Of a DNA stretch of 64,000 bases, positions 9,546 to 63,621 are shown in pieces. Every line of letters starts with the position of its first letter. The stretch's first letter is position 1. The translations under genes were made by a program, and so were the position numbers. The DNA lies in contig JADGJC010000038.1 in assembly GCA_027596075.1 (NCBI GenBank), positions 1 through 64,000 on the forward strand, written 5' to 3'. Source of the stretch: Rhizophlyctis rosea. Lineage: Eukaryota > Chytridiomycota > Chytridiomycetes > Rhizophlyctidales > Rhizophlyctidaceae. Below the pieces are notes generated by a model. It was not told where the DNA came from, made no database searches, and saw only the letters and a list, made by a program, of their open reading frames with translations.

Positions 9546-12500
9546 TCACGGCGGAGAAGACGTCACCCCCTCACCCCCACCACCCGAACTTCCATACTTC
9601 TCCGGCAAGATTTGGTGTCTGCGAAGGTATTCCTTGACGTACTTCTTCACGGATTGAATGGCGGGCGTCGAGAGACCCTTAAAGCCGTTGTCGTGGTTTT
9701 TGGATCGGAGTTCTTTGTCCACTAGGCCTTCGGTTAACTACATTATGGCAAATATTGATGAGCGGTTGTGTTATGCCTCAAAGCGAAACGCATACTTGGC
9801 CCTAACACGAAACACATACCGCCTTGGCCAGCTTTTTGAACTTGTCCTTCGTCATAGAATCCTTCACCTTCGACATTTGCTTCACCACAATATTTGATAT
9901 CTGTTGCACCAAAAACAAAACGTATCAGATCAGCGGGTCGCGACCAAATAGAAAATCACCGCTCAACCCCACCTCATCCTTCAACTTCTTCTCAATATGA
10001 CCCATATCCACCTCATGCCTGTCCTGCTTATGATGCTTATCCCTGCCCGACCGTTCCCTACCCCACTCCTCCTGCTGATGACGATCATGATGCCCATTCG
10101 AATAAGAGCTAGGTCGATCATGAGGATGCGGACGATCATGAGTATCACGATGATGATACGCCTCCGTCACCTGATACGGCGGCGTCCGTCCCCCATCCGA
10201 CCAGGCCTCCCATTTCACCATCCCCGCATCCATATCCCGATTTCCATCCGCTGGCGGATAATGCATTGAAGGCGTAGATGCCGCCGCTGGAGTCGTGGAG
10301 CTGCGATCATGTTCGTGCCGGTGTTCTGCTGGGTGGGTGGGCGAAGGAGCCATTCTCGGCGGGTCCCAACTTGTTTTGTTCGTGCGGATGTTGTAGTAGT
10401 AGGGCCATGACCCATCGGGTGGGTAGTACTTTCTCCAGTCCGGTGGCAACACTTCTGCGGACGGCGGGCGCACACCATTGTGTGGGCGCGGAGGCGGGCC
10501 GCGGAAGCCGTTTGCGGGTGATGCATGCGACCCATGGTATGGTCTAGGGGAGGATGGATACGGTGAATGGTACTGTGACGGAGGTCCGCCGTGGGATGGG
10601 TATGGGCCATAAGGTGATGGTCGGTAGGGTGGACGGGAGGATGGTGGGTCATCAAGATGACGTGGTTGATAATGTGGTGAGAACCGACTTCCTTCTGCGG
10701 GTAGGCGTGGGTACGACGGTTTGACGTCGGCGCGGTGGGGATCCTGCGGACTGGGTCGGTGACCCTGGTAATCCGGAGTTCGCCGATAACCGTAGGTTGA
10801 AGAGATTGAGTTCCGCCGTTGTAATTCCACGCCTTCCCCTTCCTCGTCTGACCGCGCCCGTTTGACCTGTCTCTCCAAAGTGTGTGCCTCTCCGTCTACA
10901 TCATCGAACGAACGTTTCGACGGGGTATCGGGTGTAGCGGGGTCCATGGATGCGGTACGCGCAGAAACTCCAGGTTCCTAATCCGTTACCAAAAGTGTAC
11001 CTTTAGTAACAAGCAGGTGGTGTTGGACGACAGTTCAATGATTCACCTCTTTCCGAGCTTTCTTGAACCTTGACGTCAAGTTCTTCCACTTCTTGGTGAT
11101 CTGAGTTTGTAATGAGCGGTTACCGCGGTCCACCGATTGATGACAGACCGATCTCGCCATCCATACCTTATGGGCTTCTCCCGCAATTTCTTCGTCCGCA
11201 TGCTTCTCCAACTCCTCAACGTACGGCTCAATTCCCAACACCTGTTCATCTCGTGCGCGCTTGTCCACTCTCAGCAAAATGCTCAAAATCTGCCATATAT
11301 AATAGATCAATAAGGACCACCATCAGCTGATCGTCAGCAAAGCAAGTAACTCACCCTTCCAACAATGTTGGTGTCGTCAAAATGATTCCGGAGAATGCCT
11401 TTCAACACAACCAATCCTTGATATCCAACAAATGTTCTGAGCCGTGCAGAATCCATTTTCTGTTCGTCCCACGTGTTAGCCTTCAACCGACGCCAACATG
11501 AGAATATGAAACCATCAAACGCACCTCCACCGCCTGAACAAGCATTGACATCTTTTCCGAATCCTCGCCATACAAAGCAAAAAATCGTGCATAATGTCTG
11601 ATTTGATCTTCTTCCGACTCGTCCACCTCCTCCTGCTGGAATTTAATTGAGTGTCCCACCAATCTGGAAAAGAAGTGTCGCCATGTTCAATACCTCGGTG
11701 TACTCCGGATCATCCTCCTGCTTCTTCCTCTTAACCGCAAGGATTTCATCTCCCACGTCATCCTCGAACACAACATCTAAGATGGCTCATTAGAATATCA
11801 ACGAACCAAAAGTGCCCCATGATTTGATCATACCCTCAAATGAATCATCCAGCTTATATTTCCGCCCTTCCCCACCAATAAACCCCTTGCACTTTGCGGC
11901 CCCACAATAGCACCGCTGTGCTTCCATACTGATGAAAATAGTCTCAATACTGATGTTTGCATTCTGCCACCACCAACGACGAACTTGAACCCACCCATAT
12001 CGCTGAAACTGGTAATCGAACGTCAACTCGTTACCAGCGGAGATGTTTTGATTCGCAAAGATCCCCAATCGCAGATGCGGTCCCACAACCCATTTCGTCA
12101 ACTGACAATTGGGTTCACAGCTATGATTCATGAAGCGCGCGTGATTCCCTTTCCGGTAGGCGTCGATGGTCTTCGGAGGATTCGTCAATATTAGCAACAT
12201 TCTGGACGGAAAATTGCATTTTTTGAAGGTACCTCGTTATCTTTCAGCTGCATGAAGTAGAAATGCTTCGCCCCCTCTTCATGATACTCTTGTATCCGTT
12301 TGTGGAACATAGCCTTGGTGATAACCTCCCCGCAGTACTCAATGACGAGAAGTCCGCTGGACAACCGAATTAGCACAATCGCGATACCAGACCAACTCAA
12401 CCAGCGCCTTATATCCTTACGCATGAATATCCTCCAGCGCGCGCAAACCAAAACCCTTCTTCTCCGTTCGGAATACCTCGATCCGCGGATAGCGCTTGAG

Positions 12501-48013: not shown

Positions 48014-51000
48014 ATGATGACCACTGGGGATAGGCAAGCAGGTATGATCCCTGCTTCTCTAGTGTCCTCTCCATGGTCATAGAATCTTACATTGTGTTCG
48101 CCATCTCTCAGACGCCATCCGAGTCGTCTGTCGTTTCCGGCCGCAGAACTCGCGTGAATTGAAGGAAGGCGGTGTACCAATCGTAGCGTTCGATGATGAT
48201 ATGACAAGTGTGAAATTTGAGGTATGTGCTCTCTGTGAGAGCACTTTAGGCAAAGGATTGGGCTCTCCGTGTTGATACCCATCAATCCTTCCCAACAGAG
48301 TAAAGAATACCCGGGAACTTTCGCCTTTGACCGAATCTTTGACTGGAACACGTCACAAGAGCAAGTTTTCAACTATGCGGCTGGCGCTACTATTGAAGGT
48401 TAGGAATGGGTGCTTTTGAAGTAGATCGATGGATACTCATGATGATGGGCATCAGATGTAATGCGGGGTTATAACGGAACCATTTTTGCATATGGGCAAA
48501 CTGGAAGCGGTAAAACCCACACTATGATGGTAGGTGTTGACCTCCAGACAGAAAATGTCGGATTGGCAGAAGGCCTGATCGTTATCGTTCATTAGGGTGA
48601 TGTCGAAAATGACGAGCTACGTGGTCTGACTCCTCGTCTTGTCGAATCCATCTTCTCCACCATCTTCAATGCCCCAACCAACCTCGAATTCACTGTGCGA
48701 GTATCCTACATGGAAATCTACATGGAGAAGATTCGGGATCTGCTGAACCGTAAGTTCCTGCGCATTGCGCATGTTAAGGTAGCTGCATCAATATGAACCT
48801 GACTTGGTCATATCCTTCTTCCAGCCGCGAACGACAACCTCCCCGTTCATGAGGAGAAGAACCGAGGTGTCTACGTTAAGGGACTGTTGGAGGTGTTCGT
48901 TGGGTCCGTAGCTGAAGTTTACGATGTGATGCGAAGAGGACAGAGTTCGCGGTCGGTTGCATACACCAGTAAGTTCGGGAAGGTCCAGACCGCAGGACTT
49001 TCTTGCGCATGGTGCTGACTCCAACCCTCACTCAGACATGAACGCTGAGAGTTCTCGGTCACACTCTATTTTCGTTCTCACGATCACCCAAAAGAACTTG
49101 AATGATGGAAGTCAGAGGTCTGGAAAGTTGTACCTTGTCGATTTGGCTGGTTCCGAGAAGGTCGGTAGTAGCGCAGATTGAGGTTGCATCTGCTCAGAAC
49201 ACCAATACCACGGGGTCATATAGGTCGGCAAGACTGGCGCATCAGGTCAAACATTAGAGGAGGCAAAGAAGATCAACAAGTCTCTCTCGGCGCTCGGCAT
49301 GGTTATCAACGCCTTGACCGATGGAAAGGTGCGACTTCGTTTTTTTCAAATGTCGTTGATTTCTCAATGGAAATTGCGTTCGCTGACACACTTCATTACA
49401 GTCTTCCCACGTCCCATACCGTGACTCCAAGCTTACCCGTATCCTGCAAGAATCTCTCGGTGGTAACTCCCGAACAACCCTCATCATCAACGCTTCTCCT
49501 TCGTCCTTCAATGAAGCCGAAACACTATCGACTTTGCGGTTTGGTATGCGGTAAGTTCTTTTATTCTTTCGTGAATCTCAATATGTGCGCGATTGCTTGA
49601 CATTGCTGGCTATAGTGCGAAATCCATCAAGAACAAGGCCAAGATCAACGCCGAACTGAGCCCGGCTGAATTGAAGGCCCTCTTGAAGAAGTCGAAAACC
49701 GACCTTACCAACTTGCAGAACTACTGTGGCCAACTGGAGGGAGAGTTGAACGTGTGGCGATCAGGTGCGTTGCGATCTACCTCCGAAGTACCTGCCGCCA
49801 TCAGCTGACATGTTGGATTGCCACAGGTGGTTCCGTCCCTCAGAGCGAATGGGTCACATCACAATCATTCTCGGTGGAGGGCAAGACCCCGTTGTCCGCC
49901 ATTCCTCGCGACCTTGCCGATATCGCCGCACGCGCAGCAACGCCGGCGCCTGGACCTGCTGTGACGGACGATGAGCGCGAGGACTTCCTGCGGAGAGAAA
50001 ACGAACTATCAGACCAGTTGGCGGAGAGAGAGGCGGAGCTGAAGGATCACCGTGCGAACGTGGCAAGTCTGAACGAGGAGATGGCGTTCTTGAAGACACG
50101 AGAGCAGGAAGTTGCGGTGGTAAGTGCCTAAATGATCCAATCGTTGCGAACATGTGCTCATGCTATGCCTTAATTCTGCAGGAGAACAAGCAGCTGAACT
50201 CAACGTTAAGCGAGTTGCGGCTGCAATTGGAGAAGGTTTCCTTCGAAAACAAGGAGAGCACTATTGTCGTTGATACCCTTAAGGATGCTAACACGGAGAT
50301 GGCGAGAGAAATTGAAGCATTGAAGGTGGGTCATCACTTTACCTACAATGCGCTGACCTGAGAAGTCGAAGCTCATTGTATGTCACAGAAACAAATCATT
50401 GAGCTGCAAGCAGCGAAGCCCGCTGCTGTCCTCACCGAGGAAGACAAGGCGAAGAGGAAGCAAGAGAAGATGGCACAAATGATGGCCGAATTTGATCCTT
50501 CGGTGAGCTGTAATGTGCCATCTTGATTCCTAACGGGCAGCTTACAAAATATCCTCGCAGACGTCCATGACGGACAAGGAGAAGCAAATGCGCGACACCA
50601 TGGCCAAGCTCGCCCACCAGAAGGAGAACCTCCAACCGCCAACAACACCAGAAGATATCGAAGCACAGCACTTGGAGCTCCTAGAAGCGAAGACACAGCT
50701 CGCACAACAGGAGTCGTTGATCGATGACTTGTTGTCCAAGTGCAAGATCGCCGAGGAGGACGCAACTTTGCTTTCCAAGCGCAAGATCGAGGTCGAGACC
50801 AAGCTCACTCAGTTGGAGCAAGAGTACGAGGAGCTGTTGGACAAGACTATCCAGGAGGAAGAGCAGAACGCTGGACCTGATGTTGCTAATGCTTTCGAGG
50901 ACTTGAAGGTAAAGGAATTGCAATTACACATCGTGATTCCTCCGGCTTATATGGCTTTGTTCATTAGACCAAGCTCGAAAGTCAGTACAACACCAAGCGC

Positions 51001-52307
51001 GAGATGCAAGAAAAGGAAGTCGAGGACCTCAAGAGCCAAGTCACCCGGAAAGACGAGGAGATCAAGCGATTGGAGACGTAAGGACCTAGCCGCTACACAG
51101 CCGTCGTGTTTGCAAAGGCTTACATGTTATCCCTACTCTGCAGTTCCGTTTCGGAAAGCCAGAAGTCCATCGAGGAACTCAAGACGGCAATGGAGACCAT
51201 CAAGGCGACCGCGCCTGCCGCGAACGGAGCTCCCGCGTCACCAAACGATGAAGTCGAGAAGATCCGCAAGACGATGGCGCAACAGCTTAGCGAATTCGAT
51301 GCCATGAAGAAGAAGTTGATGCGGGAGTTGCAGAACCGTTGCGAGAAGGTGAGGATCCAATTGTCTATCGCCTGGGGGCGGGTGGAAGCGGTGTGATCGT
51401 TGGGGTTAGCTCATGACGAGCGATGTGGATTTGGAGCAAGGCGCAGGCTGGTACCTGCAAAAAGAAACGTACCAGTGATGCAGTTGAGGTCAGAAAAGAA
51501 TCATTAGAGGAAGGGCACACACTGACCGACCCCGACCTTCAACAGGTCGTTGATCTCGAGATCGCGCTTGACGCATTATTGAAAAAGAAGAGGGCCCAAA
51601 CTGATTCACCCGGCCCACAACAGGTTGTGGAGCTCGAGATCAGCCTCGACGAGACCCGCGAGCAATACAACAACATCCTCCGCAACAGCAACAGCCGCGC
51701 CCAACAACAAAAGATGGCCTTCTTGGAGCGCAACCTGGAGCAACTTACCAATGTGCAGAAGCAGCTGGTTGAGCAGAACTCGACGCTCAAGAAGGAGCTT
51801 GCGGTTGCTGAGCGCAAGCTTAGTGCCCGGAATGAAAGGATTCAGAACTTGGAGACGCTGTTGCATGATGCGCAGACGAAGTTGGATTTGCAGAACCAGA
51901 AGTTTGAGGCGCAGTTGTCGGCTATGAGGGAGAAGTTGCAGAGTGCTCGATGTGAGTTTTTGTGTTACTTCGTCATTCCGAAGACATACAACTAACATTC
52001 TCATTGCAAACCCAACAGCGTCTGCCTCACCATCCAACTCGAGCTGGCTATACAACAGCCGCATTGCCCGACCACTCCGTGGCGGCGGCGCGCAACCCGT
52101 TACCGGCGAAACTGATGATACCATTGGCGAACTTGGTAAGCATCGTCACCGTTTCACATTACAACACAATGCGGAAAATGCTTCCATGTACGTGCACTAA
52201 CGTCTTCATGCACAGAATCGGAACGCAACGAACGCCCAGAACGCGCCAGCACACCCAGCCTGAGCAGCAAGCGCTCATCCTGGTACATCAGCCTCCTTAA
52301 GAAATAG
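48014..52307 (+). CDS. KIN1: Conventional kinesin heavy chain (kinesin-1, fungal type)
   Basis: Plus-end microtubule motor for vesicle and organelle transport. Exon 1 (ATG 48014, MMTTGDRQA) joins at 48112 to give [16 protein letters not shown]. Motor motifs are [20 protein letters not shown] (P-loop), [13 protein letters not shown] (switch I), [11 protein letters not shown] (switch II), [20 protein letters not shown] and [20 protein letters not shown]. The neck and a long coiled coil follow ([40 protein letters not shown]). Then comes the fungal-kinesin segment [20 protein letters not shown], followed by [20 protein letters not shown]. The tail ends [11 protein letters not shown] with TAG at 52305-52307. 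About 15 short introns. One intron (51349-51545 or 51349-51623) has two alternative acceptors 78 bases apart, in phase. The gene symbol is generic; the family is certain. Confidence 0.94.
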
Positions 52308-53753: not shown

Positions 53754-54971
53754 ATGCTAGGAGGATCACTGCCCGTGCAAGCACCGCGAGGGGCGGTCAT
53801 CGTGCCGAACTATCAAACCTTTCTGATCAAATTCGCCTATCACGTCGACCCGGAGTTCGCGGACCTCGTTAATTGGCGGGGAATGACGTTTTCTGAAGTT
53901 CGACGAGTAATAAGAGCATTGGTTGCCCGGAACGCAGTCTTGTTGGAAAGTTTCAATAAGGGCACTGTATTCGTGACTCCTTGGATCCTTACACATCTCA
54001 TAGGATTAACACTATACGCTTCGCAGGTGTTGAACTGTACGAAAGGTTATGGGAGTCGGCATTCACTGAGGAATTCGATGTGACGTCTACTGGAGTATTG
54101 ATGGCGAGGTTGCTGGTAGGTCTCTCTCTGAGTGTCCTTACTCAAATTTTCGATGGTCATTCATTAAGCGCTTTCTTCGCTATCATATGCAGACTTACCT
54201 TGACGGGTTATCTATGATCGCAGCGGCCACACCCAGGGCGGGCGAAGGCCTGACGCGTATGTTGGCAACTCCAGACCTCTTTGCTGCACAACTCAAGAGT
54301 TGATATCTCTTCCGTAGGTGTTCTGTTGATGACTAGTGCCGTATGGGCCGCTGAAGCAAAAAGTTATGAAGCATTTGACATGTTTTTCGACCTTTTGAAC
54401 CAGCATCAGCAAAATTTTCCGTAAGTCTCTCAACTTTGGGCCACGTATAGACAAATTAGTTTGATTCTGATTTGTACACACCCCAGGAACATCCCCATCC
54501 CATCACAACCCTCTTGCTTAATATCCGCCCTAAGACTGCTAAGCGTTCTAGCGCGTAATGACCTTACAACCTTTGACTCGGAATTTGAGCAAATCCCGCA
54601 CAGGGCTCGGAGCCATCAGTATATTCGGTTCGCGGTGAGGATTGCGCAATATTTCCGTTTCGATCGATACGAGGAATTACTTGATGCGCGGAGCAACGTG
54701 CCTGTGGAGGAGTTTGCGGCCTTCTTTGGGGTTGTACTGTGGCGAGCACGGTATGTTTCTACCAGCACAGCCTGTGCATGGACTGTTGAGCTGTGATCTG
54801 ACATGGCATCATCATAGGCGTTATTACATCAGGTACTTGCATCGTTTTTACAAGTCGCTCCCAATTGCGGACGTTATGAGAAGATTGCATTTGAAGCGGC
54901 AGGAGGATGTGATGCAGTTCATGGATAAGGTGGCAAGAAAGCTTTCCGGAGTTCCTTCTGCTGGTCGGTGA
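53754..54971 (+). CDS. Divergent 26S proteasome lid subunit Rpn12/PSMD8-like protein
   Basis: Six exons with good splice signals. The recognisable part spans exons 4-6: VLLMTSAVWAAEAKSYEAFD and MFFDLLNQHQQNFP, then ALRLLSVLARNDLTTFDSEF, YIRFAVRIAQYFRFDRYEEL, NVPVEEFAAFFGVVLWRARR and FYKSLPIADVMRRLHLKRQE with DVMQFMDKV. The order and spacing match the C-terminal CSN8/PSMD8 (PCI-type) region of Rpn12, which sits in the proteasome lid. Similarity is weak in sequence but continuous across four introns. The first exon (MLGGSLPVQAPRGAVIVPN...) does not match Rpn12. The normal C-terminal segment is missing or replaced. TGA at 54969 ends this model. An alternative intron from 54964 to 55103 would fuse it in frame to the next feature. 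It may be a diverged extra copy rather than the housekeeping Rpn12. Confidence 0.55.
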
Positions 54972-55103
54972 CCTTTATATTGATAGTGGGCTTGGGACGG
55001 TTGCGTATTACCTCCTCAAGGAGACACACTATTCTTCATCAACAGCAGCTTGCAACCCACACCCTCGTGAGTGCATCGTTTGATTTTGATCAGCATACTT
55101 CAG

Positions 55104-55537
55104 GTAAATGTAACCTTCATGCCATCGATAGCCCGGCTCCGAACCCGCCTCCTCGACGCGCGGAATCACCGACACCCGCACCGCAACCTACGCATCGCCC
55201 CATCCCCACCCAATACCCTCTTGCCAGCCGCTTCGCCTACAGCGCCATTCCTGGTTTCAATCGAAATTTGAACAACTATTTGACCGGCAAGCGCGGCCAA
55301 AAACTGACCGGCCATCTATATTGGAAGGACGCGTTTACGTGCTTCGTGGCGGAAAGTGAGCATGTAAGAGTTGCTGACGTCCAACAAGTGCTGGTCAATC
55401 TTTGGAGAGAAGGGCGAGTAAAAGGCAACCTGTCTGTGAACATTTTGCCATCCGATGTAGTGGCTGCACATGTAGCGTTGGGTGCTTTGGGGTCTACGTC
55501 GTTGGGTGAGAAGGCTACTTCTGATGTTCTGGGATGA
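55104..55537 (+). CDS. Member A of an unrecognised right-end gene family (5' end uncertain)
   Basis: The open frame ends at 55537. A Pro-rich lead (SPAPNPPPRRAESPTPAPQ) precedes a domain reading IPTQYPLASRFAYSAIPGFN, NNYLTGKRGQKLTGHLYW, CFVAESEHVRVADVQQVL and LPSDVVAAHVALGALG. The same pattern occurs in the genes at 57330 and 61675. No ATG opens this frame near the domain, so it is either spliced to an upstream exon or is the C-terminal part of the Rpn12-like gene. The GTCGGTGACC donor at 54964 and TACTTCAG acceptor at 55103 would join them in frame. I know no named family with this pattern. Confidence 0.55.
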
Positions 55538-57329
55538 GAGACTGATTGAGTGTGCGGATGTGAGGGGAAAGTTTCTATGTAGTGGATGGTTTGTCATGAT
55601 GTTAGACGTAATGTAAATTGCTTGAGAATGTAATGCACATAGGAAGTAACATATAATATGATACCATAGAACCCAGGAGGTTCACGTCAATGTAGATTTC
55701 CGTTAGCAAGGGGGATAGTTGTGTTGTGCCGCTGGATGAATAATGGTTTAGATGTGTTATGGAAGACCCTCATCCAGTTGAACAGATACGTTTGAATGCA
55801 AATCATGGCTCCGTTGGCCGGGCTTTTCGAACAGGACACGTACAGGACACGTACAGTGTCTTCCAACGCCACGAGTTTTGGCAATTTGAACCAGCACGTG
55901 CATAGTAATCATCGTTCTCCCGGTGGCCGGACTTGAAACTGCCTGGAGCTGCATTCTGAAAAGTTGATGAGGGCCGTCTCGACCACCTTATCCTTATCGG
56001 CCCCGGACACGGACATTCCTGACCTTCCGCAGGCCTTGTTCCTTGGGCTCCTTCTCCCGGCATGGGTGGCCTGGTGGAGCGCACACGGTTCCGTCCTGAC
56101 GACCACGGTGGCCTTGTCGTCGCGATGCGGTATGTCCTTCTGCGCCAGGCTGGTCTTGAAGGCGATGGGTTCCACTCCCTGCAGGGGGTTGGCGGGATTG
56201 ACCAGGTCTTCAAATGCAACCGACTGTTCAGCAATGATGATCCTTGCAAGGTACATGCTGTGCCGCGCGACAGACTCCACCCCGCGGAAGTAAGTGCCTA
56301 CCGGGCGTTAAACGGAGACTGAGTAGTCTTGGACTTCGCGCACCCCCCTGTCATCATTCGAACGTCCGTGTTGATTAGCATCGTGAGCTGCTGCATCAGG
56401 GTGTCCATGTGGGTTTGTATCTGCAGCAGCTCATCTATGGCCCTGAGCAGTGTTCCACGGCTTCCAAGCAACTGCGGAATATGAACATAAGATCGGGTGT
56501 GAATACTTTTAAAACTTTCTCATTGGCATGAACTTCGGCACAGTATATGCGATGCGCGTATGACATTTTCTGCATGCTATCCGTCTCCAAAAGGCAGAGC
56601 TCCCCAACTTTGTCAACTCCGCGTGTCCTATTACACATTGATGTCGATTCGTATTGTCTTCACACGTTGTGCCGTCTTCTTCCATTTCTTCAAAGTGGTG
56701 GTCACTGCTGGGCTGTCTCCATTGGCAGAAGTCGCCAATGTACTTCGGGGTCCCTGATTCAGTCTTCGTTGTTGATTGATGAGATGCGCTGCTGAGACAT
56801 TGAGGCATGGTGACAACTTTGTAGTTCCCGATTGAGGTCGCCAGAGCGAAGAATGCCCAAATTGAAGTCATTGAGGGTTGGGCTTCCATTTCATTGCCCA
56901 ACGGCCTCAATATGTCACACGCAAAAGCTTCTGACAGCGACATGAGTGTATGTCCTTATGGTCTAACAACTTAGCATTGTAAGCAAGAGAAGGAACGGGG
57001 AAATCGCAAGAGCCAATCAGTGATATAGTATGTTGAAGCAAGATTCAGTAGAGGGCGTCCTGCAGCGCGCAGTGCGCGCGCTCGACGAGGTGAACTGGCT
57101 TATGTCAGTCAGTGGGTGAGGCTTGTTGATGATGCATTCAAAAATCAAATGCCCCCTCGCCAACCCAGCTGTCTCCACGTCATGTCTTCTCCTCGGCTGC
57201 CTGTCAATTACCGCCAACGAACACAACGAACCTATCAGCGAACCAAATCCGAAAATAGCAACCAAAAAGACCACAAACCGAACAAAGTATCCAATACTCA
57301 AAAGCATTCTTCCGCGTCACCAAAACAAA
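55538..57329. other. 1.8 kb gene-poor stretch
   Basis: Contains one open minus-strand frame, listed separately at 55909-56280. The direct repeat ACAGGACACGT occurs twice at 55832-55853. Otherwise I see nothing. Confidence 0.35.
55909..56280 (-). CDS. Open frame of unknown nature, about 123 codons
   Basis: I do not recognise it. The frame reads SMYLARIIIAEQSVAFEDLV and NPANPLQGVEPIAFKTSLAQ, then KDKVVETALINFSE. Composition is protein-like and GC is higher than in its surroundings. There is no supporting start context, splice pattern or neighbour. The opposite strand is also open over part of it, so it may be a fragment of a mobile element or simply chance. Confidence 0.22.
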   Translation of the reverse strand: MESVARHSMYLARIIIAEQSVAFEDLVNPANPLQGVEPIAFKTSLAQKDIPHRDDKATVVVRTEPCALHQATHAGRRSPRNKACGRSGMSVSGADKDKVVETALINFSECSSRQFQVRPPGER

Positions 57330-57719
57330 ATGCTGGCAACCAGCTTTCCCGACGCTTCCCAATATCAGTACCGTCCCGAGCTGTCGGGTTACGATGTCAG
57401 ATTTTCCGAATGGCTGAACGGCAAACGTCAGCGAGGGTGGCTCCTGCCGAACGTGCATTGGGTCACTTCCAACAAATGCTACGTCAAACAAGACTCCGGC
57501 ATCAATTACGGCGACGCCATCGCGGCTCTTCGCAAGCAGTGGAAGTCCCTTCACCTGCCGCTAAGGCTGACAATTGAACGCTTACCGACAGATTCTGTCG
57601 GTGCTTGGGCTGCGCTCGGGGCTCTGGAACAAGATCCTGCATTACAAGGCCAAGCTCCAGCACGAATTTCGGACTGGTTGAGAAGGACTGAACGTGCCAC
57701 TGGTCAGAATGGACAATAA
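57330..57719 (+). CDS. Member B of an unrecognised right-end gene family
   Basis: From ATG 57330 the protein is 129 residues and consists almost entirely of the shared domain: LATSFPDASQYQYRPELSGY, FSEWLNGKRQRGWLLPNVHW, KCYVKQDSGINYGDAIAALR, LTIERLPTDSVGAWAALGAL. Compared with C (61675) the matching positions include FPDxSxYxYxPxL, the F-x-x-W-L-x-GKRQR core, P-N-x-x-W, K-x-C, and LP[ST]DS-x-A-W. The open frame extends upstream to ATG 57129. That would add a 67-residue lead with a hydrophobic patch (STSCLLLGCLSITA) followed by many Lys/Asn/Pro, so a longer form is possible. No membrane segment, signal peptide or known motif lies in the domain itself. Function unknown; the basic GKRQR core might contact nucleic acid, which is speculation. 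Confidence 0.6.
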   Translation: MLATSFPDASQYQYRPELSGYDVRFSEWLNGKRQRGWLLPNVHWVTSNKCYVKQDSGINYGDAIAALRKQWKSLHLPLRLTIERLPTDSVGAWAALGALEQDPALQGQAPARISDWLRRTERATGQNGQ

Positions 57720-60700
57720 CAAGTTTGGGCTCCGGCGAGGAACAATCACATACGGAAACGCAAGCATGTAGCGAACAAAGTATACCATCACAAAAAGCTG
57801 TATATATAAGGAATCAGGATACCCGGCCCCAGATTGAGTGACTGGATCGGACTGATTGGATGTGATACTGGTGGTGGCGACTACTTCATGATGTGTAATG
57901 GGGTTCAACATTGAAACATTTTGGAAGGGCGTCTAGTGCAATGACCCAAACTAGGTCTCACGCATTGTTTGGAGGGGCATGTGTGGTCGTGCAACCGTCG
58001 GGTGGGATGGAATTTGACAGTGATTTGATCATGAAAACCAAACGAAATGACATCGTGAATGACAAAACTGCTACATCCATTTTGCTCGTTTAGCGCTTCA
58101 ATCATATGCTTCACTTTGCCGACAACTGACTGCGACAGTTCCAAGCATCCACCAACAAGTCACGCGTGTTGTCCGGGCCACAAAACCTCTCTCTGCTAAA
58201 AATGCGGATACCTGTGGGAGTTCATACCTAGAGGTGGAGGCTTACATGTGCATCGTGATGGCATGTGACTAACAATCTCCACATGAATGGACTCGGTGTT
58301 TCCATTTGCAGAATGAAACCCGGCAGGTTGCGTTTCCACCACAGCCGTTTTCCCAAACTAACTATTGCCTTAGTGACAACAAGTCTCGGTCCCAAACAGT
58401 ACTTCTGTGAATAAAGTGTGTAACATCGTACGAGCTGTCTCTCGCTCCCCTTACACCCAAGCAACATTTGATTTCATCAGTCATCAAAACAGCCTTAGAA
58501 GAATAGCAATCCATCAACGGAGCACGTCAGTGATGATGTCTAGGTGACAAGTGAGTGTCGGTGACGGTACCCAAAAGATGTTAACAACTGCGTAGACTTC
58601 AACTTGCAAGAAGGGGATCTTCACCAAGTGCATCACGATGAACTGGATGGTGATGTGATATAGTCGTGTTCACGGTGGGCTTGCTCTTACAGCTCTACCC
58701 GCAGACCACCCTGCGGCCCAAAAGCGCAAATAATTGCTAAGCCCCATTGGAGACATCTCAAAAGCAGTCTTGAAGCGCCAAGCTATTCGCGAATCCTACT
58801 AGAGTTGCGGTCGGTCTCGGAGCCCTCCACCGGCACACTCCTCATCTTGCTCAACCATCCATACTCACTACCTACCTGACCAACCGCTCGCATGTTTCTA
58901 CTTTCTATGGCTACCGCACTGGATCCGCTGAGGGACAACAGTATCTCTGGCCATATTCCCGGCAACAATTACCTCATCAAAGTGGCTGACGACATTGACA
59001 TCGCGACCATTCAACATCATCCCCCTCCAAATGGACAGGGTCGTGGCATGTACAGATTCCTTACAATCAGCCAATTTCCCACAACCGTTCCTCCCGCCTG
59101 GCTTCATGAGCTCAGGCGCAGATCACTGCACGCAAGTCCAGCAAGTCTAATGAGTCAGACCAAGTTGACAAGTAAAGTGGCCATTGGTAGCCTGACGACA
59201 ACGTGATCCCATCCTTCAAAACGCCCAAGTGCGCGAAGCTGGTACTATCCAGTGAAGTGTGGTGGTGTTCATATGTTGCACTATGAGCGAAGGTCAACCT
59301 TGTAAATGCACATTGATAGTGCGGGTCAGTACAATGATGTTCTGGATATTGCAAACCATCAATCTCATCGAAAGAATGCTAAAGAATGCTACTTACCTGT
59401 GTCGTCATAAATTCATCAAATACTTGCTTCAAATGCTGCTCGCTCTCAAAAACTGATGCTCGAGTATCACACAAGTCTTGCTCACGCGCAACTGGGGATC
59501 AACAACCGTCAACAAGGTCTCCATCTGCCCCGCTGAGTAGTGGAGGGACCTTACATTGTCTTACAAGTGCCGCTGAGAATTACCCCTGTTTCTTTGATCC
59601 TTCTATGTTTGGTGAGTTATTGATCAAGTCAAGAACCGAATGTGCAATCAATAGCAGGAGTCTTACATGAGTTTTCCCCTATTGATGAAGTAGTACGTAG
59701 GACGGAGAGGCAGAATAAGAATGCGACCTTAAGCAATGGTAATCCCCTTACTCGTAAGGACGCAGGAGGGAAGTATCTCTAATTGCAGTACACAGGGAGT
59801 GGTCTGTCCATACATGTGGTAAAATACCCTTCCTCATGTCCTTGCAAAAGTCGCATTAAGTGCGTAAAACCTTTCAATTGGAGGATTGAACATGACGATG
59901 GTTCGTAGTTTTAAGGTTTTTGATGTTCTCTACCTTGCAGAACTTCTGAAGCGGTTCTGATTATGTTTCGTTAGTGACTTTCCCTTTGTTGCATCCGATG
60001 TTATGAGTGAGTAGCAGCTCTTTCGACGCTTGAGTAAAGTTTTGCATAATGTTTTGCTGTAACTTGCCTGCGGACAACAGCACAAACCGATCATGCTTAT
60101 TGCACTTAGGCCTTGCGAACTTGTTTTCCTCTCCCAGCCTACTACCTCATGATGCACAGCCAACGTTCTCCAATCGACACCGCAACAGCATCCGCCGACC
60201 CCCATCAAACATATGCCATAGCACTTTCCCACGCGCTATTAGGCTCCAAATACTGTGTATGTTGCACGAGATCTGCAGGGCGCAACGTTCGTTGGTCCAA
60301 CGGTATTTGGTCTAAAGGACTAACGGCAGCATCAGGCGACCCTTGCGTTGTTGGGAATTTCGGCTGAACGTAAGGGATGCTTGAATCATTTCGGTGCAGC
60401 GGCCAGAGTGGTGGGGACTCTGCGTCTTTTGTGTCGGTGACGGCGATACATTTGGATAGCATTAGTGAGTAAAAGCTCTATGCGTCAGAAAGTAGTACAC
60501 TCACCTGAAATGTCAGTCGGGAGTGGAACTCAGAATGCCACGTTCTCTGTACATATATGTGACGCGAATCAGCTTCTTGAAGAAAGGGCGTCTTCCGAAG
60601 TCTTCCATTGTTGCGCATGAGTCTCTTTATTCGTCGTTCAGTATTAGGCCAGCCGTTATCAGGCCAGCCGTTATTTGTATGGATTATTGGCGCCGCATGG

Positions 60701-61403
60701 TTATGTTTTAGTCAAGAGAACGTTACCACCGCTGTCACACATGCCGTTGATATCTTGGAACAGCGCTTCTCCTTATTGTGAACACCAAAGGACCGTCGCA
60801 ATGAATACAATTCCGATAATCTACCGAAAACTTCCACACAGACCTCTCATAATGACGGAAACAATGGTGGAGGTTTAGGCACTCATCAGTATGATGATTC
60901 GTGAAAAGGAAACCACACTCAACAATCAATGGCGACGATGGCGGAAGACTTAAGAGGACATGGTCGAGGCTCGGAAGTTCGCAAATCATCGCAGCAATAA
61001 GCTAGAGATGTGGGCTTTTGTGCCAAATAGGTGCCCGCTATGGAGATGACGGATACTATGTGATGACATAATGTGGATGACCCTGACCACCCAATAACAA
61101 TGGCGCGGGGGATTCAGGGCGGAGTTGGATTCAAATATGAATGAGATGGATGCTGGCTAATTTCTTGAGTGGTCGTAGACGCGCGGAGCGTGATGGGAAT
61201 ATTACTCATCGAGTCCAAATCGTCGGACATTATATTGGCCTGGCATGCAAATACCGCCACCAATCACCTTCCATCAAGCACTCTTTCCCACGATCCACTT
61301 TCATATACCACCGCGTAGAACGGCGGTCAAAAAGTACTCAACGACGCAAAGCAATAGCAAAACTTGAGATATTTCACACATCAAACAGATCGTTCTCGTC
61401 AAC
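57720..61403. other. 3.7 kb gene-poor stretch, no supported gene
   Basis: I read both strands. Frames near 58892-59206 (MFLLSMATALDPLRDNS...) and 60113-60367 are open, but have no motif, no relation to the A/B/C family and no convincing introns. A tandem repeat of GGCCAGCCGTTAT lies at about 60648-60675. It is the longest unexplained stretch in the window. Confidence 0.4.
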
Positions 61404-62177
61404 ATGGTTTCTGAAGATTTGGTGATTGTGCCGAAGATCGATGGTGGAAATGGCGGGGAGACGTCAAGTGGTGAACCTTCGATTGGGGCGCCGGAGAATG
61501 ATGACGTCGATGGTGATGGGGAAGTGTTTGGTAAGTGTCAGTGAGGGAACAATGTCCAGCAAGTCTTTTGACCCCGAGGACTGTGGCATGTGTCTACATA
61601 AGCTGATGCGTAAATTGATACCGTCGTCAATTTGGGCCTGCTCTCACCGCTCAATTATGCAAAACTTTGTGTAGCATCCAAAAGAAAGCGGTCCCCAAGC
61701 CCAGAACTGGACCCTGCGAACAACCCTTCCAAACGCGTCAAACTCGGAACTCTCCGTTCTCGGTCCACTAGTCCTCCACCTGCTGGATCGTCTTCTCGCT
61801 CTGCCATCCCGACTCACTATCCCGATCCGTCCAGCTACTCCTACAGTCCAACTCTGGCAAGGTACAATGCAAGTTTTGGCGCCTGGCTCCTTGGAAAGCG
61901 TCAAAGGCACTTGCACCCGAACCTGTTCTGGACGACCGGCAAAAGATGTTTCATCAAAGACGCGCCCGATGTCGATTTCGAGGCAACGCAGCAGGAACTT
62001 CAGGCCAATTGGCGGAAAACTGGAGCACACGGTGCAATTGGTGGATTGAAAATCGAGAAGCTTCCATCGGACAGTACTGCAGCATGGATCGCCCTGCAGG
62101 CTGCAACCGACATCCTCGCCCGCAAGTCCAACAAAAAGACCAAGAAATTACAACCGAAGTCCATGTCACAAATTTGA
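61404..62177 (+). CDS. Member C of an unrecognised right-end gene family (two exons)
   Basis: The best-defined member. Exon 1 (61404-61530) encodes an acidic N-terminus, MVSEDLVIVPKIDGGNGGE... ending DDVDGDGEVF. The intron is canonical (GTAAGTGTCA to TTGTGTAG). Exon 2 (61675-62177) opens ASKRKRSPSPELDPANNPSK and RVKL, two basic clusters that look like nuclear localisation signals. The shared domain follows: IPTHYPDPSSYSYSPTLARY, FGAWLLGKRQRHLHPNLFW, KRCFIKDAPDVDFEATQQEL, LKIEKLPSDSTAAWIALQAA. It ends with a Lys-rich tail (RKSNKKTKKLQPKSMSQI). Total 209 residues, with exon lengths 127 + 503 giving an intact frame. The acidic-basic-domain layout suggests a nuclear protein; function is unknown. 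Confidence 0.68.
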
Positions 62178-62734
62178 TGGGCGGATGTCGGTGTCCACGT
62201 CTTTGCTTCTAGATGTACTGCATTGGAATGATTGGGGGTTCGTTTTCTCTGTTTTTCATGGGTGCGTAACGAAATGGTAGAGAAACGATAAGTAGTGTAT
62301 GCAGTAAAAGGGGCTCAGAATACCCTCGTAAATTGTACATAAAAGCTTTAGTAAAAATACCAACGACCTGATAGGGTCTTTTGACGGCTGTGCGAAATCA
62401 TGAATCATATCAGGATAGCGGGCGGTGTTGTAATTCCGATACCGTTTGCATAAAAGCAGTGCATGATTGCAGCTTGATTGCCAACCTCTTCCCAGTTTAC
62501 CATGTCACGGATACCATATTGACCAGCAAAATGTCTAAGGTTTGATATAGTGGGAGCAGGGGTCACTGAAAATGTTCTATTTTCAATTTTGCCAATAGAA
62601 GAGTCTCCTGAAACCCTAACCCTAACCCTAACCCTAAGGGTGAATAAGATCACTGAGCTGTATTCAATGAGCGCTACTAACCCTTGGCCTTCTTGAATAG
62701 CTTTTGCACATGAACACTCAAGATTGAATCTCAC
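62178..62734. other. Intergenic, with interstitial telomere-type tract
   Basis: No gene supported. It contains the CCCTAA tract at 62614-62637, listed separately. Confidence 0.5.
62614..62637. repeat. Four perfect CCCTAA (TTAGGG) telomere-type units
   Basis: Four contiguous CCCTAA units, followed immediately by GGG. This is the standard fungal and animal telomere repeat, here well inside the sequence and in the orientation expected at a left chromosome end, with at least 1.3 kb of DNA beyond. It may mark a healed break, an old end joining, or a telobox-type binding site. Confidence 0.9.
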
Positions 62735-63180: not shown

Positions 63181-63621
63181 AGGGTTTGGCATGGGATTGG
63201 GGATGAGGATGATAGGGATGGGATTAAGTGGAGTGTCGAGTAGTGGGAGCATGACGAATGGGTTGGGAGCTGGGATTGAGGAACCTTTTTGTGCGTCAGT
63301 GGTGTCATCGATTCTTGCTGGGGCATTGGGATGGTTGGGAGGGGCATTAAATGGGTTGTTGGATACATTTAAGTGGGGCGCTGGGGATGGGATGGGTGTG
63401 GAAACGCCTACGGGGTCGGTGGCGGGTGTTGGCGTGAAGATTGAAGGCGTGAAGCTCGCAGGCTTGCCTCGTCTACATCGACGACATCATCGTTTTCTCG
63501 CTCGGAAGATGTGCGTAGGGTTTCCTTGAAGCTCGAAGACGGACAACCTCAACCACAACCCCAATCCGAACCCACCGCTTCAACACCGATAAATCGCGAC
63601 ACCCATCACATCCTTCCCCAG

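What the first reader, a model, noticed from the sequence alone, without database searches (positions are those of the whole stretch)
55104..62177. Three same-strand relatives of an unrecognised about 95-residue domain near a putative subtelomere
Genes or gene parts at 55104, 57330 and 61675 share a pattern I cannot assign: YP-x-x-S-x-[YF]-x-Y, then P-x-[LF]-x-x-[YN], then [WY]L-x-GKR, then a W after about ten residues, C-[FY]-[IV], and a closing LP[ST]D-x-x-A-[AW]. They match only at protein level and carry different flanks: a Pro-rich lead and possible fusion in A, domain alone in B, an acidic plus basic nuclear-type N-terminus in C. Old tandem duplicates on one strand in gene-poor DNA with a telomere repeat nearby suggest a fast-evolving, lineage-specific family. 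The similarity is seen; the subtelomere setting and any nuclear role are inference.
Basis: partly seen in the sequence, partly recalled or inferred. Interest (0 to 1): 0.75.

Follow-up and report, generated by a model that had tools for sequence, protein, structure and literature searches.

The report
Undescribed protein domain in a chytrid
A soil chytrid fungus carries a small, so far unassigned protein domain in a run of old, partly decayed gene copies, and the same domain is also joined to an RNA-binding protein, which hints at a role in RNA handling; it is real, but a fairly ordinary case of a lineage-restricted gene family.

Summary
In detail: A, B and C share a domain of about 95 residues (29-39% identity; far above shuffles). 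The window is the start of a 209-kb contig of a 44.1-Mb chytrid genome (Rhizophlyctis rosea, named through). Ten loci with the domain were found: eight on this contig at 55-83 kb, two elsewhere. One of the two is the C-terminus of an RRM protein whose RRM matches fission-yeast Nrd1. B/E and C/D show purifying selection; three of ten copies are broken by stops and D has a frame offset before its domain. No convincing Pfam, NCBIfam or PDB match; in 5.8 billion proteins only the genome's own RRM protein matched. Two related models give helix-strand-strand-helix-strand-helix without a clear structural relative. The subtelomere reading fails: four internal repeat units, no telomere array on the contig. 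Best reading: a lineage-restricted interaction module, probably of RNA-protein complexes; that function is inference.

The parts
55104..55537 (+). Copy A: terminal exon with Pro/Ser/Arg-rich lead and the domain (about 55202-55501). No ATG in the frame; needs splicing to an upstream exon, or is a remnant
53754..54971 (+). Multi-exon gene like proteasome subunit RPN12/PSMD8 (PCI), directly 5' of A; possible fusion partner. Its true 3' end is not settled
   Evidence: Pfam CSN8_PSD8_EIF3K 41.7 bits against cut-off 23.7 on a hand-spliced model; PDB: PCI-domain protein 8amz_T E 1.8e-11, then PSMD8 E 5.8e-10 and RPN12
57330..57719 (+). Copy B: intronless gene, 129 aa, domain plus short tail
   Evidence: purifying selection against copy E outside the window; model
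61404..61530 (+). Copy C exon 1: acidic N-terminus
   Evidence: ATG and GTAAGT donor, phase 1; same arrangement in copy D
61675..62177 (+). Copy C exon 2: basic NLS-like lead (KRKR ... KRVKL), SP-rich linker, domain
   Evidence: the NLS likeness is judged by eye
61197..61303 (+). Non-coding stretch upstream of C, 78% identical to the matching stretch upstream of D (C312:66606-66717), more alike than the coding parts (67%)
62614..62637 (.). Four CCCTAA units, internal; not a telomere. Context, not part of the family

Best explanation
A, B and C belong to a family of ten loci found in this genome that share one small alpha/beta domain not described in the libraries searched. Shown: homology of the ten, coding constraint in the two closest pairs, clustered copies of which some are broken, and fusion of the same domain to an Nrd1-like RRM protein. 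Inferred: the domain is a protein-protein (less likely RNA) interaction module that serves as the C-terminal part of an RNA-binding protein; related copies form a tandem run on this contig, with different leads (acidic plus basic NLS-like in C and D, none in B and E, possibly an RPN12-like protein in A). The stand-alone copies most likely bind the same partner as the RRM protein's tail, as adaptors or competitors in nuclear or messenger-RNA complexes. Copies arise and decay (birth and death).
For: Profile against profile, copies A-E versus H, I, G, F, aligned separately: probability 98%, E 2.4e-13, score 75.6 against at most 17.6 in 60 column shuffles (the four had been found by searching with family members, so they are not a random draw). 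Whole-genome search with the family consensus: 10 matches at E 10 or better, the ten loci and nothing else. pN/pS 0.36 [0.26-0.50] for B/E and 0.38 [0.28-0.53] for C/D, third positions changed most. H lies in one open frame with its RRM region and is a deposited protein; residues 129-215 match the Nrd1 structure 2rt3 at E 2.6e-22. Models from B and from C have the same order of elements, though they rest on the same four sequences. C, D and H carry a basic stretch before the domain, I one at its C-terminus (read).
Against: No expression data. No fold match says what the domain binds. Of the ten copies only H is joined to a named RNA-binding domain; I's partner region has no Pfam match above cut-off, and A's likely partner, if spliced, is proteasome-like. 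No Pfam domain was found in A, B or C as scanned. Stops in 3 of 10 copies, a frame offset before D's domain and A's lack of an ATG allow that part of the cluster is dead. No deposited protein matching the cluster genes was found within the length limits.
Confidence: 0.4

Rival explanations
1. A lineage-specific family with no RNA role: a small structural or protein-binding domain joined by chance to several hosts, the cluster drifting under weak constraint.
For: Leads differ between copies; three of ten copies are broken; identity to copy C is 18-38% for all members but D. The possible partner of A is proteasome-like.
Against: Purifying selection in B/E and C/D; the non-coding stretch upstream of C and D stays 78% alike.
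Confidence: 0.35
2. A very divergent member of a known alpha/beta-plait or KH-like family (RRM lacking its first strand, KH/RbfA, CDF C-terminal domain), missed by sequence methods. It can hold together with the other readings.
Confidence: 0.2
3. The cluster is mostly dead: remnants of an old family, only H and I being live genes. It can hold together with the other readings.
For: D has a one-base frame offset before its domain; the 65.5-65.8 kb copy (frame change and TAG), F (TAA) and G (TAA) are broken; A lacks an ATG; no matching deposited protein found.
Against: B, C and E have open genes; pN/pS well under 1 for B/E and C/D. Selection before a recent death would leave the same trace.
Confidence: 0.2

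Closest known systems
Nrd1-type RRM proteins of fungi (S. pombe Nrd1)
   Same: Locus H (C160, deposited protein HDV00_004977) has an RRM of this type, E 2.6e-22 to 2rt3
   Different: H ends in the new domain; the one search with that tail found no other protein that has it. The copies in the window have no RRM
RNA recognition motif (PF00076)
   Same: Rough order of elements: helix, two strands, helix, strand, helix
   Different: No first strand in the models, no Pfam match, no profile match
Lineage-restricted tandem gene families of fungi (recalled as a general kind)
   Same: Tandem copies, strong divergence, broken members, no relatives found elsewhere
   Different: The domain is also fused to an RNA-binding protein; not at a telomere in this assembly; no signal peptide seen by eye in B or C

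Membership tests
RRM (PF00076) | Profile match to the family | tested here: not met
   RRM is not among the Pfam matches of the 9 members at E up to 10, HMMER's filters on; hhalign score 11 against six RRMs, shuffles up to 15, RRM against RRM 84
RRM (PF00076) | Beta-alpha-beta-beta-alpha-beta fold | tested here: inconclusive
   Both models lack a first strand, but mean pLDDT is 71.5 and 74.1 from four-row alignments
Nrd1-like RNA-binding proteins (locus H only) | RRM closest to Nrd1 | tested here: met
   2rt3, E 2.6e-22, next best 1.1e-5 among PDB chains. Pfam finds one clear RRM and a second only at a permissive threshold; Nrd1 itself is recalled to have four
RPN12/PSMD8 (gene 5' of A) | CSN8/PSMD8/EIF3K profile above cut-off | tested here: met
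   41.7 bits against 23.7; PSMD8 and RPN12 chains in PDB. The model is spliced by hand, so exon borders are uncertain
Subtelomeric gene family | Lies beside a chromosome end with a telomere array | tested here: not met
   Only four internal units on this contig; other contigs show arrays at their first bases. A chromosome end just beyond either end of the contig is not excluded; the copies would still lie 55 kb or more from it
Any Pfam or NCBIfam family | Convincing match, above the curated cut-off | tested here: not met
   Pfam, 9 members: best E 0.0081 (GMT-wHTH, one member; for copy A 16.2 bits against 27), 0.17 and 0.24; NCBIfam best E 0.053. Cut-offs of the other weak rows were not shown
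CDF C-terminal domain / DUF59 / KH-like plaits | Significant structural match | tested here: inconclusive

The most novel reading that the evidence does not exclude
A new protein domain, restricted to Rhizophlyctis or its close kin, is the C-terminal interaction module of an Nrd1-type RNA-binding protein and has been multiplied in a tandem run of free-standing copies that compete with or tune that protein, so that one fungal lineage built its own regulatory layer on a conserved RNA-granule protein.
Probability: 0.2. Interest if true: 0.6.

Novelty: new variant of a known kind. Interest (0 to 1): 0.35.

Why it matters
If the RNA link holds, it is a clean case of a lineage-restricted domain attached to a conserved RNA-binding protein and also multiplied in free form, in an early-diverging fungal phylum. 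Even without it, the ten loci define a domain that the curated libraries searched here do not hold, and no deposited protein matching the cluster genes was found within the length limits.

Tried and rejected
Subtelomere: rejected for this assembly. RRM descent: rejected at sequence level. My first idea that the gene 5' of A is a SAC3 mRNA-export factor: weakened; the spliced model scores 41.7 bits for CSN8/PSMD8/EIF3K (cut-off 23.7) and 23.9 for SAC3_GANP (cut-off 27), and PDB matches are mostly PSMD8/RPN12. The GMT-wHTH hit of one member (E 0.0081-0.015; 16.2 bits against 27) and PDB profile hits such as WD repeat 48 (E 1.1) and engineered proteins (E 0.02): taken as chance. Viral origin: one scan of viral contigs with B found no relative, and BFVD gave none at E 0.001. 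Weak genome matches on C390 (E 0.398), C279 (0.024), C535 (0.594) and C605 (3.41) were not taken as members: they did not return with the consensus. WW-protein fusion of G: the WW-like frame (C312:80705-81916) ends before G and I found no phase-fitting splice by eye; left open. Absence from fold lists does not exclude a family. Literature: of searches I saw the listings with starts of abstracts; of PMC3261880 outline and abstract. I claim no absence from print.

Full report
Observation. The three stretches are real and related. Copy C (61404-61530 and 61675-62177) and B (57330-57719) are 39% identical over 100 positions, C and A 35% over 131, A and B 29% over 98. Against 500 residue shuffles per pair none reaches the observed score for these three pairs. 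Over all 36 pairs of nine domains, 24 have 0 of 500; the weakest are D/F (271 of 500 reach it), I/F (46) and A/G (38), so the divergent copies F and G are tied in through intermediates.

Setting. The window is bases 1-64000 of contig C312 (209,146 bp) in a genome of 44.1 Mb and 634 contigs. A protein encoded on contig C160 is deposited as HDV00_004977 of Rhizophlyctis rosea, on a contig of 63,122 bases, the length of C160; the species is a chytrid. By eye, the contig begins inside a protein-kinase gene and ends in what looks like a tubulin gene; neither was scanned. Four CCCTAA units lie at 62614-62637, the only run of two or more exact units on the contig. Telomere arrays sit at the first bases of C164, C253, C337, C339 and C391 (whose listing is cut after C404). 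Pfam finds Rpb2, SacI, lactonase, fatty-acid hydroxylase, BAG and ankyrin matches to the left in 6 of 7 frames scanned; the seventh (50534-51304) had none. So the setting is internal as far as this assembly shows.

The family. Searches with copies C, B, A, F, H, I, G and E, an HMM scan of the whole contig except its N runs and a consensus search of the genome agree on ten loci: A 55.2 kb, B 57.3, C 61.4-62.2, a broken copy at 65.5-65.8, D 66.8-67.6, E 69.4, G 82.0 (all plus strand), F 82.9-83.2 (minus strand) on C312, H on C160 and I on C442. The tool scores only its best candidates, so ten is a lower bound. Three of ten are broken: the 65.5-kb copy (frame change and TAG), F and G (a TAA each near the start of the domain). 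D's domain is open, but the KRKR part of its lead is in another frame after a one-base difference from C. In the contig scan the nine matched frames (the 65.5-kb copy gives two; seven of the nine frames had gone into the HMM) are followed by one at E 0.11; shuffled frames reach 0.58. Array and dispersed copies, aligned apart, match at 98% probability.

History. E is closest to B (61% identical) and D to C (65%); the broken copy is closer to B (61 and 63% over short pieces) than to E (44 and 46%). The order B, C, broken B, D, E fits repeated duplication of a B-plus-C unit, one C copy being lost; this is inference. DNA still aligns for B/E (70%), C/D (67%) and B/broken copy (66%), and for stretches upstream (78%) and downstream (70%) of C and D. 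dS is 1.47 for B/E and saturated for C/D, with pN/pS 0.36 and 0.38; for the eight more distant pairs pN/pS is 0.57-0.74, with synonymous sites at or near saturation, so little can be read from them. These are old copies that were long kept as proteins.

Architecture. B and E are the domain with a short tail, no intron. C and D share an acidic first exon, a phase-1 intron and a second exon with a basic lead. A's frame has no ATG. Upstream lies a multi-exon gene that, spliced by hand, matches the CSN8/PSMD8/EIF3K profile above its cut-off and PSMD8/RPN12 in PDB. Of seven GT sites tried between that gene's last clear exon and A's acceptor, one (54964, GTCGGT, not a good donor) gives a stop-free join; a good GTGAGT donor at 55067 fits A's phase only in another frame of the exon, which has stops upstream. 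Fusion is possible, not shown. H is an uninterrupted frame with the RRM region; residues 129-215 of the deposited protein match Nrd1 structure 2rt3 at E 2.6e-22. I follows a charged, coiled-coil-like stretch in one 353-residue frame that ends with a basic stretch; its Pfam matches are all below cut-off.

Wider relatives. Three searches of about 5.8 billion proteins: C alone, 60 candidates, none at E 10; the nine-domain alignment, 1047 candidates, none; the H tail within its protein, 242 candidates, one match, the genome's own protein. The method needs shared five-residue words and similar length, so distant relatives, or the domain inside much longer proteins, can be missed. One viral-contig scan with B found no relative.

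Function. What is shown stops at a constrained, duplicated domain joined to an RNA-binding protein. S. pombe Nrd1 goes to stress granules and its RNA binding is regulated by MAPK-dependent phosphorylation (PMC3261880, abstract). I infer that the domain is an interaction module of such a complex and that the free copies bind the same partner. I hold this at about 0.4, with a family without RNA role close behind; the rivals overlap, so the odds do not sum to one.

Noticed in passing
window 9928-10977 (-) and C312:80705-81916 (+): A WW-domain-like, Arg/Ser/His-rich protein in the window has a relative (three stretches, 52-78% identical) about 70 kb away on the same contig, directly 5' of domain copy G. 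The WW match is 25.2 bits, just under Pfam's cut-off of 26.9.
   Followed up: partly
window 63465-63500 (+): One frame reads CLVYIDDIIVFS, which looks like the catalytic motif of a Ty3/gypsy reverse transcriptase (motif recalled, not searched): a likely retroelement remnant near the cluster.
   Followed up: no
window 53754-54971 (+): RPN12/PSMD8-like gene; another weaker match to it lies on C112:125907-126188 (30% identity over 95 residues), so this may be a second, divergent RPN12.
   Followed up: partly
window 61197-61303: The stretch upstream of C is more alike to its counterpart upstream of D (78%) than the coding parts are (67%), as a kept promoter would be.
   Followed up: no
genome-wide: C243:7911, C299:5613, C326:29789: Single three-unit telomere-type repeats occur at other places away from contig starts too, so the one in the window is not unusual; lengths of those contigs were not checked.
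   Followed up: no
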